DNA of 64,000 bases, from contig NZ_CP053833.1 in the NCBI RefSeq assembly GCF_013201935.1, positions 1 to 64,000 of the forward strand, read 5' to 3'. Within the stretch, counting starts at the first letter, position 1. Each line of letters starts with the position of its first letter. This document shows, one piece after another, positions 1,484 through 51,264 of the stretch. The notes below the pieces were generated by a model. That model ran no database searches, had not been told where the DNA came from, and saw only the letters and a program-made list of their open reading frames with translations. The position numbers were made by a program, and so were the translations under genes. This DNA is from Arcobacter cloacae. GTDB lineage: Bacteria > Campylobacterota > Campylobacteria > Campylobacterales > Arcobacteraceae.

Positions 1484-2554
1484 ATGAGGTTTGTAATTAC
1501 AAAAAATATATTCGAAAATGTTATAGCTTCTATGCAACCTTTTTTAGAAAAAAAAGACTCTAGCTCAATAACATCACATATATATTTAGAAATCAATAAC
1601 ACAAAATTAATTATCAAAGCAACAGATTATGAAATTGGTTTAGAATCATATATTGATAATATTACTGATATGGTAGATGGAAAAATTACAGTAAACGGTT
1701 CTAATTTATTAGGAATTATTAAAAGATTAAAAAATGAAGATATTATAATTGAATCTTTAAATAACAATTTAATTATAAAACAAAATAAATCTACATTTAA
1801 ATTACCTACTTATGATGCAAATGAATTTCCTTCATTAAACAAATATGAAAATTTAAAAGATTTATCAATGTCAACAATAAACTTCATTAATTCTATAAGA
1901 AAAATTACACCTGCAATTGATAATAATAATCCTAAATTTGAATTAAATGGTGCATTACTTGATATTAAAAGTCAAAAAATCAATTTTGTTTCAACTGATA
2001 CTAGAAGATTAGCAGTCTCTTTTTTACAAAATATAAATAATGATGAAGTTCAATTTATAATTCCAAAAAAAGCAATCATAGAAATTCAAAAACTTTTTTT
2101 AGATGAAGCAAAAATATCTTACGATGATACAAATTTAGTAATTTCAAATGAACATACAAAATTCTTTACAAAATTAATAAATGGAAAATTCCCTGATTAT
2201 GAAAGAATTATTCCAAATACATTAAAATACAATTTTCCATTACCTAAAAATGTATTAGTAGAATCTATAAAATTAGTAACATCACTTTTCTCAAATATTA
2301 AAATCACATTTAATTCAACTTCTATAATTTTTGAATCATTAGATGAAGATAGTGAAGCGAAAACTCAAATTGATATTGATTTAAATATTGAAAAAGAGTT
2401 TTATTTAGCAGTAAATGCAAAATATTTATTAGACTTTTTAAGTATGTCAAATAATGACAAAATCAAAATTGGTTTTAATGAATCAAATTTACCATTTTTA
2501 CTAGAAGATGATAAATTTTTTACTATTGTAATGCCAATAGTTTTAGAAAAATAA
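1484..2554 (+). CDS. dnaN: DNA polymerase III beta subunit (sliding clamp)
   Basis: DnaN forms the ring-shaped clamp that tethers DNA polymerase III to DNA. The 356-residue length and the three-fold clamp pattern fit: an N-terminal domain to about residue 120, a central domain containing STDTRRLAVS near residue 170, and a C-terminal domain ending in VMPIVL close to the C terminus, as in other clamps. The start is supported by an AGGAG site a few bases upstream. It lies between dnaA and gyrB in the conserved origin order. The protein is rich in Asn, Lys and Ile, as expected from the low GC content. Nothing unusual was seen. Confidence 0.97.
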   Translation: MRFVITKNIFENVIASMQPFLEKKDSSSITSHIYLEINNTKLIIKATDYEIGLESYIDNITDMVDGKITVNGSNLLGIIKRLKNEDIIIESLNNNLIIKQNKSTFKLPTYDANEFPSLNKYENLKDLSMSTINFINSIRKITPAIDNNNPKFELNGALLDIKSQKINFVSTDTRRLAVSFLQNINNDEVQFIIPKKAIIEIQKLFLDEAKISYDDTNLVISNEHTKFFTKLINGKFPDYERIIPNTLKYNFPLPKNVLVESIKLVTSLFSNIKITFNSTSIIFESLDEDSEAKTQIDIDLNIEKEFYLAVNAKYLLDFLSMSNNDKIKIGFNESNLPFLLEDDKFFTIVMPIVLEK

Positions 2555-2567
2555 AAAAATAAATTAA

Positions 2568-4904
<2,337 letters not shown>

Positions 4905-45875: not shown

Positions 45876-46178
45876 ATGACTATATTAATACCAGTAGATT
45901 CAAAAGATAGACATCAATGTATAATCTCTTCAATTGAAGAAAATAAAGCTTGGGCATTTGTTACTTTAGATGAAGGTAAAATAGCTAAAGTTGAGTTTTT
46001 TGATAGACGAGAAGATATTACTTGTTGGATAGATGCTGTAGTTGTAATAAATGAACTTGAATATGTTTGGCCATTTATGGACGAAGGTATTATTGCATTA
46101 ATTGCACCAACTCAAAAAAGTATAGATGAAATTGTTGAAGCTTTTTTATTCAAAGATTTACATGACTTTACTGTTTAA
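45876..46178 (+). CDS. Small NifX/NafY-fold-like protein, unknown function
   Basis: The 100-residue protein begins MTILIPVDSKD and has alternating strands and helices (AWAFVTLDEGKIAKVEFF, IDAVVVINELEYVWPFMDEGI, IDEIVEAFLF) with the layout of the dinitrogenase iron-molybdenum cofactor (NifX/NafY/NifB C-terminal) domain. The similarity is by pattern only; no metal-binding motif is seen. The stop codon overlaps the bluB start by one base (TAATG), so it is translated with bluB. No nif gene is in the window. It may be a partner of bluB or an unrelated passenger. Confidence 0.5.
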   Translation: MTILIPVDSKDRHQCIISSIEENKAWAFVTLDEGKIAKVEFFDRREDITCWIDAVVVINELEYVWPFMDEGIIALIAPTQKSIDEIVEAFLFKDLHDFTV

Positions 46179-46798
46179 TGAAATTTAATAAAAAAGATTT
46201 AAAGACACTTACTAAAATTATTGCCTCAAGACGTGATGTTAGAGGCAATAACTTCATAAATAAAGAAATATCAAGTAAAAAGTTAAAAATAATACTTAAA
46301 TCTGCACTGAATGCTCCTTCTGTTGGTTATTCTCAACCTTGGAAGTTTATAATTGTTGATAAAAATAAAAAAGATGAAATTTTTAAACATTTTAGAGATT
46401 CTTTTGAAAAAAGTAAAAAAGATTTTATTGATAAACCTTTATATAATAAATTAAAACTAGAAGGTATAAAAGAATCAAATATAAATATAGCTGTTTATTA
46501 TAAAAAAAGTAATTCTAAAGTCTTAGGTCAAACTTTTATGAAAAGAACAGGTGAATACTCTGTCGTTTGTGCAATATTAAATATGTGGCTTACAGCAAGA
46601 GCTTTAAATATTGGTATGGGTTGGGTATCTATTTTAAAACCAAAAAAGATTGATAAAATACTTGATGTTAATCGGGATAAATACAAATTTATTGCTTATC
46701 TTTGTTTAGGCTATACAAAAGAGTTTTATAACGAACCTGAACTCAAAAAACTTAAATGGAATAAAAAAAAGAGCCTTAAAGACTCTTTTCTAAAATAG
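46178..46798 (+). CDS. bluB: 5,6-dimethylbenzimidazole synthase BluB
   Basis: BluB breaks down reduced FMN with oxygen to make the lower ligand of cobalamin. The 206-residue nitroreductase-fold protein matches the BluB-specific motifs: RRDVRGNNF near 20, APSVGYSQPWKF near 46-58, YSVVCAILNMWLTARALNIGMGWVSI near 126-151 and YLCLGY near 169. No other cobalamin gene is in the window, so it may support a salvage path or an enzyme using cobamide. It overlaps the preceding gene by one base and faces the fumarate-reductase-like operon; a hairpin near its end may terminate both. Confidence 0.85.
   Translation: MKFNKKDLKTLTKIIASRRDVRGNNFINKEISSKKLKIILKSALNAPSVGYSQPWKFIIVDKNKKDEIFKHFRDSFEKSKKDFIDKPLYNKLKLEGIKESNINIAVYYKKSNSKVLGQTFMKRTGEYSVVCAILNMWLTARALNIGMGWVSILKPKKIDKILDVNRDKYKFIAYLCLGYTKEFYNEPELKKLKWNKKKSLKDSFLK
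46767..46789. terminator. Possible bidirectional terminator at the bluB 3' end
   Basis: AAAAGAG (46767-46773) pairs with CTCTTTT (46783-46789) around CCTTAAAGA, inside the last codons of bluB. The stem is short with mismatches, and both flanks are A- or T-rich. Confidence 0.5.
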
Positions 46799-46803
46799 TA
46801 AAA

Positions 46804-47532
46804 TTAAAATCCATTTGGATTAAAACCATCAAACTCATAATCAAAATTCATATTAAAATTATTCAAATTTGGATTTGAAAAACCTTCTTGAAAAGATATG
46901 CTTTGTAATCTTAAAATATCAGCTTTTGGGTCAATACTTTGGGGACAAACTAAACTACATGCTCCACACAAAGTACAATCCCATATCCCATCTGTTTGTA
47001 TGTTATTTAAGATTTCTTTTTTATCTTCAAGTTTTTTATCATCAACATATCTTAATGCTCTAGTTAAAGCAAAAGGACCTATAAAATCTCTATTTACACT
47101 ATAAATTGGACATGAACTATAGCAAGAATTGCATAAAATACAGTTGCTTTGTAAATCAATTTTTTCTATATCTTCTTGATTAATATCTTTATTTGAATTT
47201 ATATCTATGAATGATTTTACTTTATCCAATAAAAATGTTTCATGTGAAACATCAATAACTAGGTCTTTTATAATATTTATATTTGATAAAGATTCAATCA
47301 AGTCATTTTGATTAATTTTTGTTCGGCAAGCTAATCTTTCGATACCATTTACTTTTATAGCACATGAACCACAAACACCACTCTTACAACCACATCTAAA
47401 AGTTAATGTTGAATCATTGTATTGTTTTATTTCAATTAGTGCTTTTAATAGATTACTATTACTTACCTCAAATTCATCTATTGAATTTTTTTCTATTAGC
47501 TCTTGATTATATCTTTTGATTTTTATTTTCAT
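46804..47532 (-). CDS. Succinate dehydrogenase/fumarate reductase-like Fe-S subunit
   Basis: The 242-residue protein has a plant-type [2Fe-2S] site (C49, C54, C57, C69) and two ferredoxin-like motifs, C131-C134-C137-C141 and C186-C189-C192-C196. In E. coli FrdB the second of these has Val at the place of C189 and holds a [3Fe-4S] cluster; here all four cysteines are present, so a [4Fe-4S] is expected. There is no CCG domain and no membrane anchor gene next to it. A C-terminal Asn/Phe-rich tail (about 217-242) is unusual. It overlaps the flavoprotein gene by 4 bases. Confidence 0.85.
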   Translation of the reverse strand: MKIKIKRYNQELIEKNSIDEFEVSNSNLLKALIEIKQYNDSTLTFRCGCKSGVCGSCAIKVNGIERLACRTKINQNDLIESLSNINIIKDLVIDVSHETFLLDKVKSFIDINSNKDINQEDIEKIDLQSNCILCNSCYSSCPIYSVNRDFIGPFALTRALRYVDDKKLEDKKEILNNIQTDGIWDCTLCGACSLVCPQSIDPKADILRLQSISFQEGFSNPNLNNFNMNFDYEFDGFNPNGF

Positions 47533-49127
47533 GAAATTTCCTCAAAACCAATTTTTAATAATTTATCTTCAATCAAAGCATAAGAGTATTTTTCATATTC
47601 ATTTGAAATATTTTTAAACTCCGATCGATTATGTGAACCTCTACTCTCTTTTCTCTGTTTTGAGCATAAAGCAATTATTTTTGAAATTTCTATTTGATTT
47701 AAAAATTCAAGAAAATCTACTAAATTTCTATTATAGATTTTACTTTTATCTAAAATACCCATATTTGGAAGTTGAGAGTTTAAATTATCGATAAAATTAA
47801 TAAAATCATCTAAATCATTTTCATTTTTTATTATTCCAACTTTTTCAAATAGTTCATTTGCTAATAAATCTTTTTTTTCATAAAAATTGATTTTATTAGG
47901 TAGATTATAGATATTTTCTATTTTATTTTTATAAGAAGTTATATATTCTATGTTTTTAATATCTTTAATATTTTTTGAGTTATTTGAAGCACTTATTCCA
48001 GCTTTTTTTCCAAAAGTGATGATTTCTATTAAAGAGTTCCCTCCAAGCCTATTTGCCCCATGTATTGAGCTTTGAGCAGCTTCACCACAAGCATAAAGAT
48101 TTTCTATATTTGTTTTAAAATTTTTATCAGTTTTTATTCCACCCATTGAATAATGAGCAGCTGGATTTATAGGTAATAACTCTTTTGTTATATCGATATT
48201 CGTGTATTCTAAAGCGATTCTTTTTTCTTGAGGTAGAAGTTTATTTATTTTGGTTTCATCTAAATGTCTTAAGTCAAGATAGACTTTATCTTTATTGATT
48301 AATTTTTCATAAATAGCTTTTGTTACTTCATCTCTTGGCTTTAATTCATCAATAAATCTTTTATTTTTACTATCAACTAAATAAGCACCCTCACCTCTAG
48401 CACTCTCACTAATCAAAATATTTGAATTTTCAAGAGCTGTTGGGTGAAATTGAACAAACTCTATATTTGATAATTTAACCCCTGCTCTTAAAGCTGCTGC
48501 TGTACCATCTGCGCAATTTGATAAAGAATTTGTACTATTATTTGAATAGACTCCTGCATATCCACCAGTAGCTAAAATAGTAGATTTTGAGTAGATATTT
48601 TCTATATTTCCTGTTTTAATATCTAAAAAAACAGCACCATAACATCTTTTATTTTTTACTATTAAATCAAGTAAAAAATATTCATTTTTAAAAGCTATTT
48701 TATTTTTTATAGATTGATCAAATAGAGTATGAATTATTTTTAAACCAGTATAATCACTACTATAGCAAGTTCTTTTTTTATTGGTTCCTCCAAATTTTCT
48801 TTGCTTTATTTTTGAATTTTCATCTTTATTAAAAGGAACACCAATTGATTCAAGCCATAGAACACTCTCTTTAGCGGTTGCACATAAAGTTTTTATATTG
48901 TCTTTATTTGAGAGTTTACAAGAAGCTTTATAGGTATCTTCTATATGCAAATCTATACTATCATCATCTTCATATAAAACAGCATTTATTCCGCCTTGAG
49001 CTTGTACAGTTTGAGAATGAGTAGGATAAGTTTTTGATACTACCAAAACATCACAACCATTTTCTTTAGCACTAAGTGCTGCACATAGCCCTGCTCCTCC
49101 TGAGCCTATGATTAATAAATCAATCAT
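47529..49127 (-). CDS. Succinate dehydrogenase/fumarate reductase-like flavoprotein
   Basis: The 532-residue protein has the FAD motif LLIIGSGGAGLCAALSA at 4-20, the Q-rich site near 36-46, FHPTALENSNILISESARGEGAYLV near 226, the proton-shuttle arginine region RDEVTKAIYEKL near 268, AHYSMGG near 324 and GANRLGGNSLIE near 355, so catalytic residues are present. The residue that binds FAD covalently as His in E. coli SdhA/FrdA (SHT) is Q39 here (H37-S38-Q39-T40), so flavin is probably noncovalent. There is no Tat or other signal peptide, so it acts in the cytoplasm. It could be a fumarate reductase that is not quinone-linked; L-aspartate oxidase is less likely because of the Fe-S partner. Confidence 0.85.
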   Translation of the reverse strand: MIDLLIIGSGGAGLCAALSAKENGCDVLVVSKTYPTHSQTVQAQGGINAVLYEDDDSIDLHIEDTYKASCKLSNKDNIKTLCATAKESVLWLESIGVPFNKDENSKIKQRKFGGTNKKRTCYSSDYTGLKIIHTLFDQSIKNKIAFKNEYFLLDLIVKNKRCYGAVFLDIKTGNIENIYSKSTILATGGYAGVYSNNSTNSLSNCADGTAAALRAGVKLSNIEFVQFHPTALENSNILISESARGEGAYLVDSKNKRFIDELKPRDEVTKAIYEKLINKDKVYLDLRHLDETKINKLLPQEKRIALEYTNIDITKELLPINPAAHYSMGGIKTDKNFKTNIENLYACGEAAQSSIHGANRLGGNSLIEIITFGKKAGISASNNSKNIKDIKNIEYITSYKNKIENIYNLPNKINFYEKKDLLANELFEKVGIIKNENDLDDFINFIDNLNSQLPNMGILDKSKIYNRNLVDFLEFLNQIEISKIIALCSKQRKESRGSHNRSEFKNISNEYEKYSYALIEDKLLKIGFEEIS

Positions 49128-49128
49128 A

Positions 49129-49512
49129 CTAATCCCAAAACTCTTTTAAAGGTTCTTCTTTTTCTTTTAAGTCATTTTTTAATTGTGTATCAAAATTAAA
49201 ATCTAATTTTTCAATCTCTTGAAGTGCATTTTCAAAATCTTCTTCTTTTTCACTTTTTGAAATGTTTAAATTTTCTTGATTTTCTTTTTCTTGTTTAGGG
49301 CTAGATTTTATTTTATTTTTCAATTCTAAATAATCTTTTATGATTTTTTCATATTCATTAAAATCAAGAAGAATAATACCTGGTTTTCCATCTCGTAAAA
49401 TAATGGCTTTTTCAATCTCTTTTTTATTTAGTTTATCGAAAATATTTTTACTTTTTCTAACTAATTCTGTTGACGAATACATTTCATCAGAAGTATATTG
49501 TAATAGACCCAT
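49129..49512 (-). CDS. Phd/YefM-type antitoxin homologue without a toxin
   Basis: The 127-residue protein has a Phd/YefM-like N-terminal domain (YSSTELVRKSKNIFDKL, AIILRDGKPGIILLDFNEYEKI; about 8-60), followed by a long, acidic and low-complexity tail (about 65-127) with the FENALQEIEKLDF motif. In classic systems the tail wraps the toxin; here no toxin gene is adjacent. The gene is 1 base upstream of the flavoprotein gene, and an 18-bp palindrome lies just before its start, so it probably represses its own operon. It may be a transcription factor rather than an antitoxin. AAGGA precedes the ATG. Confidence 0.65.
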   Translation of the reverse strand: MGLLQYTSDEMYSSTELVRKSKNIFDKLNKKEIEKAIILRDGKPGIILLDFNEYEKIIKDYLELKNKIKSSPKQEKENQENLNISKSEKEEDFENALQEIEKLDFNFDTQLKNDLKEKEEPLKEFWD

Positions 49513-49531
49513 ATTAAAATTCCTTTACATA

Positions 49532-49549
49532 TTATAATACGTATTATAA
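49532..49549. promoter_or_regulatory. 18-bp palindrome, putative operator over a -10 box
   Basis: TTATAATACGTATTATAA is a perfect palindrome 20 bases upstream of the Phd-like gene. It contains TATAAT in both orientations, so a bound dimer would block the promoter. A smaller site with the same ATACGTAT core (TATACGTATA) occurs at 49613-49622, 77 bases away centre to centre. Confidence 0.6.
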
Positions 49550-49824: not shown

Positions 49825-49859
49825 AATTTATCTATAAATTTTAATTTTATAGATAAATT
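49825..49859 (-). terminator. Terminator overlapping the phoH stop codon
   Basis: AATTTATCTATAAA (49825-49838) pairs perfectly with TTTATAGATAAATT (49846-49859) around a 7-base loop. The phoH stop codon (49858-49860) overlaps the last bases. A 14-bp, AT-only stem. Confidence 0.7.
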
Positions 49860-51264
49860 ATTTAGAAAAAATCTCTTCAGCCCACTCTGTAATAGGACCT
49901 CTTAGAACTTTTTGTAATTTAATTGCGAAACAATTTACGATTTTATTTTCGTTTTTTGTTGATTTTAAAAGAGTAGTTAAGGCATTTGTATATTTATTTA
50001 CATAGAAATTATCTATTTGTTTATTTGAACCAAGTATTACAACTTTACAAGAACTATCAATTCTTGATAAAACCATCTGCATAGTTTTATTTGACATATT
50101 TTGTGCTTCATCAATTATAATAAAAGAGTTAGAAAGAGTTCTTCCTCTCATCTCTCCTACCCACATAGTTTCTATTCCATAATTACTAATCATTTGTTCA
50201 ATTCTAGAAGTTACTTCACTGTCATCAAGTTCATTAAAAACTGCATCAGGATTCTTTTTATTTCTTTTTCTTTTGTGTTCACTTCTAATTATGTAGTCTA
50301 AACTATCCATCAAAGGATGGTTATAAATCTTAAATTTCTCTTCAAGTCCAGGAAGATATCCCACATCTTCTCCTTTATCAAGAGATTCTATAGAGTTTCT
50401 AATGTATATTATCTTTTGGTAATGTTTTTGTCTTACTAATTTTAAAGCCCCACTAAGAGCTAAAAGAGTTTTTCCTGAACCTGCCCTAGCCTCAACAATT
50501 AAAACGTTATATAAGTGATTTATGATAGCTTCACTAAAGAAAAGTTGTTCTTTATTCAGTGGAGTGATTATTTGATCTCTTATCTCTTCTTCATCAAGAA
50601 TTTTTATTTTTTTATTTTGAATATTTGCCAAAATCACTTGATCTGAATATTTAACATTAAAACAATATGAAAAATTGTAAGGTTTATAATCTTTATCAAA
50701 TTTTGTAATATCTTGATTATCTAAATACTCTAAATCTTCAAAATTTATCTCTATTTCTTTGATAAATTCAAAATCAAAAACATCTTTATCTTTGCCAACA
50801 AGTGCATCTGTTTTTATATCAAGTGATATAGCTCTTGTTCTAGCCATTATATCAAGAGATAAAAATTCAACTTGATTTTTATAGTATGAATTTGCAAATT
50901 TTGCAACTTCTAGGATTTTCCTATCATTTATTATATTAGGAGAGATATTTTTTATATTTACATCATACTCCTCTTTTGAAATGATATCTATGATAGTATT
51001 TTTTTCATTTTCAATTTTAAGTCTTATAATCTTATATAAATCTTTTTTTATAGATTCTAAAATAGTTGCATTTTCAAGAATTCTTGCAAACTCTCTTGCT
51101 TGAAAATTTATCTCATCAAATCCACTTTTTTTAGTATCTATTTCATCTAAAACAGTTTCTGCTAATATGATTAGGTTCCTACCATCTTGTGAAAGTTTAT
51201 AGATGTTTGTTGCATCTTCTAGTAAGATATTTGTATCTAAAACATAGTATTTTTCAAAGTTCAT
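49858..51264 (-). CDS. PhoH-family protein with N-terminal PIN domain
   Basis: The 468-residue protein has a PIN RNase domain at the N terminus (YVLDTNILLEDA with the acidic D10, ETVLDEID near 36-43, NDRKILEV near 113) and a PhoH-type ATPase domain from about 235, with Walker A EARAGSGKT (258-266; K265) and Walker B IIIDEAQNMS near 387. PIN-PhoH proteins are linked to RNA unwinding and cleavage (PhoH2 type), but targets are unknown. It is the last gene of the rsmA-rnj operon; it overlaps hemJ by 11 bases. It ends in a terminator hairpin. Confidence 0.85.
   Translation of the reverse strand: MNFEKYYVLDTNILLEDATNIYKLSQDGRNLIILAETVLDEIDTKKSGFDEINFQAREFARILENATILESIKKDLYKIIRLKIENEKNTIIDIISKEEYDVNIKNISPNIINDRKILEVAKFANSYYKNQVEFLSLDIMARTRAISLDIKTDALVGKDKDVFDFEFIKEIEINFEDLEYLDNQDITKFDKDYKPYNFSYCFNVKYSDQVILANIQNKKIKILDEEEIRDQIITPLNKEQLFFSEAIINHLYNVLIVEARAGSGKTLLALSGALKLVRQKHYQKIIYIRNSIESLDKGEDVGYLPGLEEKFKIYNHPLMDSLDYIIRSEHKRKRNKKNPDAVFNELDDSEVTSRIEQMISNYGIETMWVGEMRGRTLSNSFIIIDEAQNMSNKTMQMVLSRIDSSCKVVILGSNKQIDNFYVNKYTNALTTLLKSTKNENKIVNCFAIKLQKVLRGPITEWAEEIFSK

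What the first reader, a model, noticed from the sequence alone, without database searches (positions are those of the whole stretch)
46804..49549. Phd-type regulator leads an anchor-less fumarate-reductase-like operon, with no toxin
Seen: a Phd/YefM-like gene 1 base before a FrdA/SdhA-like flavoprotein gene, which overlaps a FrdB-like Fe-S gene, with an 18-bp palindrome over the promoter. No toxin and no membrane anchor, CCG or cytochrome b gene is adjacent. Known: Phd/YefM antitoxins repress their own promoters. Inference: an antitoxin-like repressor has been co-opted to control a soluble fumarate-type redox pair, perhaps responding to a metabolite. It would be a regulatory module outside toxin-antitoxin function.
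Basis: partly seen in the sequence, partly recalled or inferred. Interest (0 to 1): 0.65.

Follow-up and report, generated by a model that had tools for sequence, protein, structure and literature searches.

The report
Toxin-free Phd repressor beside soluble FrdAB
A gene that looks like the antitoxin half of a toxin-antitoxin pair has no toxin beside it in any Arcobacteraceae locus examined: it is a conserved core gene that probably represses its own promoter, ends in an almost invariant protein tail, and only sometimes carries the neighbouring fumarate-reductase-like genes on the same transcript.

Summary
A Phd-fold gene (49129-49512, -) lies 1 base before a FrdA-like gene, which overlaps a FrdB-like gene by 4 bases. 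No toxin, anchor or CCG gene is adjacent, and an exact 18-bp palindrome (49532-49549) covers the promoter.

The inference that the Phd protein is a dedicated fumarate-reductase switch is only partly supported. The phd-frdA linkage recurs in 55 of 104 Arcobacteraceae genomes. But phd is as common without frdA (36 of 39) as with it (56 of 65), stays under strong purifying selection there, and mostly keeps a recognisable operator. In 9 genomes frdA occurs without phd. Other families carry frdAB, often near a 2-hydroxyacid dehydrogenase gene, without this phd, so phd probably joined an older unit.

The operator is two TAYRTA hexamers 12 bp apart over the -10, the geometry of E. coli YefM operators. 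All 31 near-exact copies in the family precede a phd gene, so autorepression is likely and a wide regulon is not. New here is an acidic linker of variable length ending in an almost invariant LK[ED]FW tail, suggesting a conserved unlinked partner. FrdAB itself is a soluble, E-type-like pair predicted to bind FAD non-covalently, widespread in Campylobacterota.

The parts
49129..49512 (-). phd-like gene, 127 aa: Phd/YefM N-domain (residues 1-70), acidic variable linker, C-terminal tail LKEFWD
   Evidence: ORF; PF02604 E 4e-4; model pLDDT 89 with Phd/YefM structural matches; family alignment
49132..49149 (-). codons of the C-terminal motif LKEFWD, conserved across the family and the only LK[DE]FW[DE]-stop in the genome
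49526..49543 (-). predicted operator: hexamers TACGTA (49538-49543) and TATGTA (49526-49531), 12 bp centre to centre
   Evidence: geometry as in YefM operators (PMC7730913; PMC4803016)
49543..49548 (-). predicted extended -10 (TGTTATAAT), followed by AAAGGA ribosome-binding site at 49521-49526
   Evidence: sequence and alignment of 13 upstream regions; by inspection
47529..49127 (-). frdA-like flavoprotein gene, 532 aa; Gln replaces the FAD-linking His; catalytic Arg, His and Arg kept; no N-terminal extension
46804..47532 (-). frdB-like iron-sulfur gene, 242 aa; 2Fe-2S motif plus two CxxCxxCxxxCP motifs; no CCG domain
49858..51264 (-). phoH-like gene, the constant upstream neighbour of phd (or of HDH-phd) in most of the family
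46178..46798 (+). convergent bluB-like gene that closes the operon

Best explanation
The gene encodes a toxin-free member of the Phd/YefM fold that has become a core protein of Arcobacteraceae. Phd dimers bind two TAYRTA hexamers spaced 12 bp over the -10 and start site and repress their own promoter (inferred from fold and operator geometry). In genomes that keep frdAB next door, frdAB is read from the same promoter and is repressed along with phd, but this is not why the protein is kept. Its retained function runs through the almost invariant LK[ED]FW tail on a flexible acidic linker, which probably docks on a conserved partner encoded elsewhere; that partner would take the place of a toxin as co- or anti-repressor, or be the real target. 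Shown: fold (by model), linkage, operator conservation and uniqueness, independence from frdAB, tail conservation. Inferred: DNA binding, repression, the partner.
For: Fold: model pLDDT 89; the 22 best VIA rows are all antitoxins or prevent-host-death proteins of this class (Z 5.8-8.0), among them operator-bound Phd 4zm0 and DNA-bound YefM 6l8e, then unrelated rows at Z 4.2 and below. Operator: 42/80 exact vs 0.85 expected; 31/31 family sites with at most 1 mismatch lie within 60 bp upstream of a phd gene; unique in the window's genome. E. coli YefM operators: paired palindromes, 12 bp centre to centre, L over the -10. Independence: frdA+phd+ 56, frdA+phd- 9, frdA-phd+ 36, frdA-phd- 3 (counted); N-domain dN/dS 0.00-0.11 without frdAB and 0.02-0.12 with it. 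Tail: 80 of 81 sequences end in FW plus one to three residues while total length runs from 113 to 426 aa; the exception is cut by a run of N. No toxin beside phd in 80 loci. FrdAB older than the linkage: orthologs in other families, often near a 2-hydroxyacid dehydrogenase gene, with no phd of this kind; family and non-family FrdA split cleanly.
Against: No binding or expression data. The operator partly overlaps the -10, whose conservation is expected anyway. In genomes without frdAB the operator is less exact (10 exact and 17 with one mismatch of 32, vs 32 and 9 of 48), which allows some tie between strict repression and frdAB. The tail's partner is unknown. The full-length model is poor (pLDDT 58).
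Confidence: 0.55

Rival explanations
1. Dedicated regulator of frdAB: the Phd protein was recruited to control a soluble fumarate-type redox pair, perhaps with a metabolite as signal.
For: phd directly precedes frdA on the same strand, mostly with a few bases between, in 55 genomes; operators are more exact where frdAB is present; phd sits inside an older HDH-frdAB unit.
Against: phd is kept in 36 genomes without frdA under equal purifying selection; frdA without phd in 9 genomes, e.g. phoH-HDH-frdA-frdB in L148; no near-exact operator before any frdA that is separated from phd.
Confidence: 0.17
2. Antitoxin in trans: the protein neutralises a toxin encoded elsewhere, its FW tail being the toxin-binding segment.
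For: Antitoxins of this fold bind toxins with a flexible C-terminal segment (established for Phd and YefM). A distant toxin-free relative, Cj0797c, is listed as essential in C. jejuni and C. coli (PMC10077673), as an antitoxin in trans would be.
Against: The only ParE/RelE-type hit in the window's genome is a 43-aa fragment; no toxin beside phd in any of 80 loci. Other toxin families were not searched genome-wide. The ddl-linked short Phd proteins lack the tail and form a separate clade.
Confidence: 0.15
3. Remnant of a toxin-antitoxin pair whose toxin was lost; no present function.
For: Solitary antitoxins are common in genome surveys (general knowledge).
Against: N-domain dN/dS 0.00-0.12, near-universal presence in the family (92 of 104 genomes) and an almost invariant tail.
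Confidence: 0.03

Closest known systems
Phd/YefM antitoxins (P1 Phd, E. coli YefM)
   Same: N-domain fold; two short palindromic hexamers 12 bp apart over the -10; flexible C-terminal part
   Different: No toxin gene; hexamer TAYRTA rather than TGTACA; tail LK[ED]FW conserved family-wide; conserved chromosomal context (phoH) rather than a mobile one
Cj0797c-type short Phd proteins (ruvA-ddl-phd-hydrolase-murF loci in other Campylobacterota)
   Same: Phd family, toxin-free, conserved gene context; Cj0797c reported essential in C. jejuni and C. coli
   Different: 71-83 aa, no linker or FW tail, other locus; separate clade, sister relation to the present family unresolved. That the ddl-linked gene is Cj0797c rests on my memory of the C. 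jejuni gene order plus the paper's Phd/YefM domain note.
8-methylmenaquinol:fumarate reductase (MFR, SdhABE; E-type)
   Same: FAD-linking His absent; cysteine pattern for a second 4Fe-4S cluster
   Different: No SdhE/CCG gene adjacent, no N-terminal export extension, far below the NCBIfam cut-offs (419 vs 1100 and 118 vs 600 bits)
Quinol:fumarate reductase FrdCAB
   Same: FrdA/FrdB folds and catalytic residues
   Different: No anchor; FAD-His missing; the genome carries a separate FrdCAB-like set at about 426-430 kb (L154)
L-aspartate oxidase NadB
   Same: Flavoprotein superfamily; fumarate-type active site
   Different: Scores below the nadB cut-off and pairs with FrdB; a distinct 484-aa NadB-like paralog lies at 0.998 Mb

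Membership tests
Phd/YefM fold family | N-terminal Phd/YefM DNA-binding fold | tested here: met
   model pLDDT 89; Phd/YefM structures at Z 6-8, unrelated rows at 4.2 and below; 24 of 31 members hit PF02604 at E <= 0.01
Phd/YefM fold family | Pfam PF02604 gathering score | tested here: not met
   window protein 20.6 bits vs 29.8; a sequence threshold, so the fold claim rests on the structural match, not on this score
Phd/YefM fold family | operator of paired short palindromes overlapping own promoter, 12 bp apart | tested here: met
   sequence only; compared with PMC7730913
Phd/YefM fold family | binds operator DNA as dimer and represses | not testable with these tools
   needs gel shift or reporter assay
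Type II toxin-antitoxin system | toxin gene in the same operon | tested here: not met
   no toxin-like ORF adjacent in 80 loci; neighbour maps
Type II toxin-antitoxin system | toxin in trans neutralised by the protein | tested here: inconclusive
   PF05016 gives only a 43-aa fragment in the genome; other toxin families not searched
MFR / E-type SQOR (SdhABE) | FAD-linking His absent; second 4Fe-4S cysteine pattern | tested here: met
   0 of 57 FrdA with the His motif, 57 of 57 FrdB with two CxxCxxCxxxCP; definition from PMC2680327
MFR / E-type SQOR (SdhABE) | CCG (SdhE) subunit gene in the operon | tested here: not met
   none adjacent
MFR / E-type SQOR (SdhABE) | NCBIfam equivalog cut-offs | tested here: not met
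   419 of 1100 and 118 of 600 bits
L-aspartate oxidase (NadB) | TIGR00551 cut-off | tested here: not met
   370.3 vs 452.75 bits

The most novel reading that the evidence does not exclude
Arcobacteraceae carry a housekeeping Phd protein, no longer an antitoxin, whose almost invariant FW tail docks on a conserved core partner and links that partner's state to transcription of its own operon, with frdAB as an optional passenger. Together with the separate toxin-free Phd clade in the ddl-murF operon of other Campylobacterota (probably Cj0797c in C. jejuni, reported essential), it would show that the Phd fold was domesticated in this phylum, possibly twice.
Probability: 0.35. Interest if true: 0.62.

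Novelty: new variant of a known kind. Interest (0 to 1): 0.42.

Why it matters
Phd/YefM proteins are routinely annotated as antitoxins. Here is a family-wide, selected, toxin-free lineage with a defined operator and a short, testable tail motif. It offers a clean case for asking what antitoxin folds do after domestication. It also cautions against reading a linked enzyme as the regulator's target without comparing genomes that have lost one of the two.

Tried and rejected
Dedicated frdAB regulator: rejected as sole role by the presence/absence counts and by selection in frdAB-free genomes. Toxin hidden in relatives' operons: the ORF scan found only spurious ORFs and one CheY-like gene. Wider regulon: operator scans found no site with at most one mismatch away from a phd gene; two-mismatch hits are scattered and similar in number to the reversed-pattern control. 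Sequence search of the PDB with the phd protein or profile gave no relative; the full-length structure prediction was poor, so the N-domain was modelled alone. Orthology of the ddl-linked short Phd: tree unresolved with 74 columns. Paper searches found no study of this gene in Arcobacteraceae; the A. butzleri genome paper describes FrdABC only. PADLOC gave nothing.

Full report
WHAT IS THERE. The window lies in an Arcobacteraceae genome of 2.81 Mb: its phd relatives are in named Arcobacter, Aliarcobacter, Poseidonibacter, Malaciobacter and related records. On the minus strand, phoH (49858-51264) is followed after 345 bp by a 127-aa Phd-like gene (49129-49512), after 1 base by a FrdA-like gene (47529-49127), and with a 4-base overlap by a FrdB-like gene (46804-47532); a convergent bluB-like gene closes the unit. 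The palindrome TTATAATACGTATTATAA is exact over 18 bp at 49532-49549.

IS IT PHD? By sequence only weakly: PF02604 at E 4e-4, below its cut-off, although 24 of 31 diverse members hit it at E <= 0.01. By structure yes: residues 1-72, modelled with 57 aligned sequences, reach pLDDT 89. The 22 best VIA rows are all antitoxins or prevent-host-death proteins of this class (Z 5.8 to 8.0), among them operator-bound P1 Phd (4zm0, Z 7.0) and DNA-bound YefM (6l8e, Z 7.0); the next, unrelated rows fall to Z 4.2 and below. Z values of 7-8 are middling for a small domain; the consistency of the list and the drop below it carry the argument.

THE PROMOTER. Upstream regions from the family align on TGTGTTATAATACATATTATAATACGTA(A/T)AGGA: an extended -10, then two TAYRTA hexamers 12 bp apart centre to centre. 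Within 60 bp upstream, 42 of 80 phd genes carry TAYRTA-N6-TAYRTA exactly and 26 with one mismatch; shuffles give 0.85 and 7.9 (relatives are not independent). In E. coli yefM-yoeB the operator is likewise two palindromes 12 bp apart with the long one over the -10 (PMC7730913; PMC4803016). In the family, every one of 31 sites with at most one mismatch lies within 60 bp upstream of a phd gene; one of these is a second, only 33% identical Phd gene in G028. The window's genome has no other site at up to three mismatches except the same site on the other strand. This predicts autorepression without a wide regulon. Binding was not tested.

LINKAGE AND ITS LIMITS. Of 104 family genomes, 92 carry the phd gene (one as a contig-end fragment) and 65 a FrdA ortholog (one partial), counted by me. 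In 55 they are adjacent in the order phd-frdA. Both are present but unlinked in one (G073). phd occurs without a FrdA ortholog in 36, many of them complete genomes; frdA occurs without phd in 9 (in one of these, G042, the contig ends just upstream). So phd is present in 86% of genomes with frdA and 92% of those without: there is no dependence. These counts are not corrected for kinship or for gaps in draft genomes. In frdAB-free genomes, close pairs give N-domain dN/dS of 0.00-0.11, like pairs with frdAB (0.02-0.12; Nei-Gojobori). Operators persist there too, though less exactly (10 exact and 17 with one mismatch of 32; against 32 and 9 of 48). Many of the genomes without frdAB are the smaller ones (about 1.9-2.4 Mb) of the window's own genus.

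ORIGIN OF THE ARRANGEMENT. In other Arcobacteraceae genera a D-2-hydroxyacid dehydrogenase gene (HDH; PF02826 E 2e-52) lies between phoH and phd, giving HDH-phd-frdA-frdB, often with a convergent DctP gene. In L148 phd is missing and HDH runs into frdA. FrdA orthologs occur in other Campylobacterota families, the best at 45-52% identity; in the 14 of 16 fetched loci that could be parsed, frdA has an HDH gene one to three genes upstream in about half, and none shows this phd; the class-wide profile search found full-length matches to it only inside the family. Family and non-family FrdA form two sides of a well-supported branch (99/100). Most simply, phd entered an older HDH-frdAB unit in an Arcobacteraceae ancestor, and later lineages lost one or the other.

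THE TAIL. Protein length runs from 113 to 426 aa through an acidic, low-conservation linker, yet 80 of 81 sequences end in FW plus one to three residues, mostly LK[ED]FW[ED]; the exception is cut by a run of N. The motif followed by a stop is unique in the window's genome. In antitoxins the C-terminal part binds the toxin. Here no toxin lies beside phd in 80 loci, and the genome's only ParE/RelE match is a 43-aa fragment. I infer a conserved unlinked partner.

RELATED TOXIN-FREE PHD PROTEINS. A class-wide search found short (71-83 aa) Phd proteins between ddl and a hydrolase-murF pair in other families, again without a toxin, and also ordinary pairs with RelE/ParE-like genes. The tail family and the ddl family each group alone; whether they are sisters is unresolved. 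A transposon study lists Cj0797c, a Phd/YefM-domain protein, as essential in C. jejuni and C. coli (PMC10077673); that it is the ddl-linked gene is from my memory of the gene order.

THE REDOX PAIR. FrdA keeps the catalytic Arg, His and Arg but replaces the FAD-linking His, usually by Gln; none of 57 orthologs has it. FrdB has two CxxCxxCxxxCP motifs in 57 of 57, the pattern for a second 4Fe-4S cluster. Both traits are found in the MFR/E-type enzyme of Wolinella, which reduces fumarate but does not oxidise succinate (PMC2680327). But there is no SdhE/CCG gene adjacent, no N-terminal extension, and scores are far below the MFR cut-offs. The genome has a separate FrdCAB-like set and a NadB-like gene. 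The likeliest activity is a soluble fumarate-type reductase with an unknown electron donor; this is inference.

VERDICT. Observation confirmed; interpretation partly supported. Autorepression is likely (my estimate 0.85); control of frdAB as a by-product of co-transcription is likely where the genes are linked; a dedicated frdAB switch is unlikely (0.17). The more interesting object is the toxin-free Phd family with its FW tail.

Noticed in passing
L108 (G069) 2460-3740: Longest family member: 426 aa, N-domain and FWD tail kept, with a very long charged linker; it sits after sucCD-like genes.
   Followed up: no
G028 contig C34:49679-49970: A second, only 33% identical Phd protein carries a near-exact copy of the same operator about 27 bp upstream.
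   Followed up: partly
G000 C1:2124392-2124529 (L216): A ParE/RelE-type fragment with a 43-aa frame and a stop inside: probably a decayed toxin.
   Followed up: partly
L141 7918-10952 (G000 C1 about 246.9-250.0 kb): Three tandem ORFs of 333-352 aa with nearly the same start (MEINNSYSQNSYQS).
   Followed up: no
L121-L140 (ddl-phd-hydrolase-murF loci): A separate toxin-free short Phd clade inside the cell-wall operon of other Campylobacterota families.
   Followed up: partly
L111 and L155 (G041, G040): The FW-tail phd gene lies directly before an aminotransferase (ilvE-like) gene instead of frdA.
   Followed up: no
window 46178-46798: BluB-like 5,6-dimethylbenzimidazole synthase gene, above its NCBIfam cut-off (177 vs 150 bits).
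   Followed up: no
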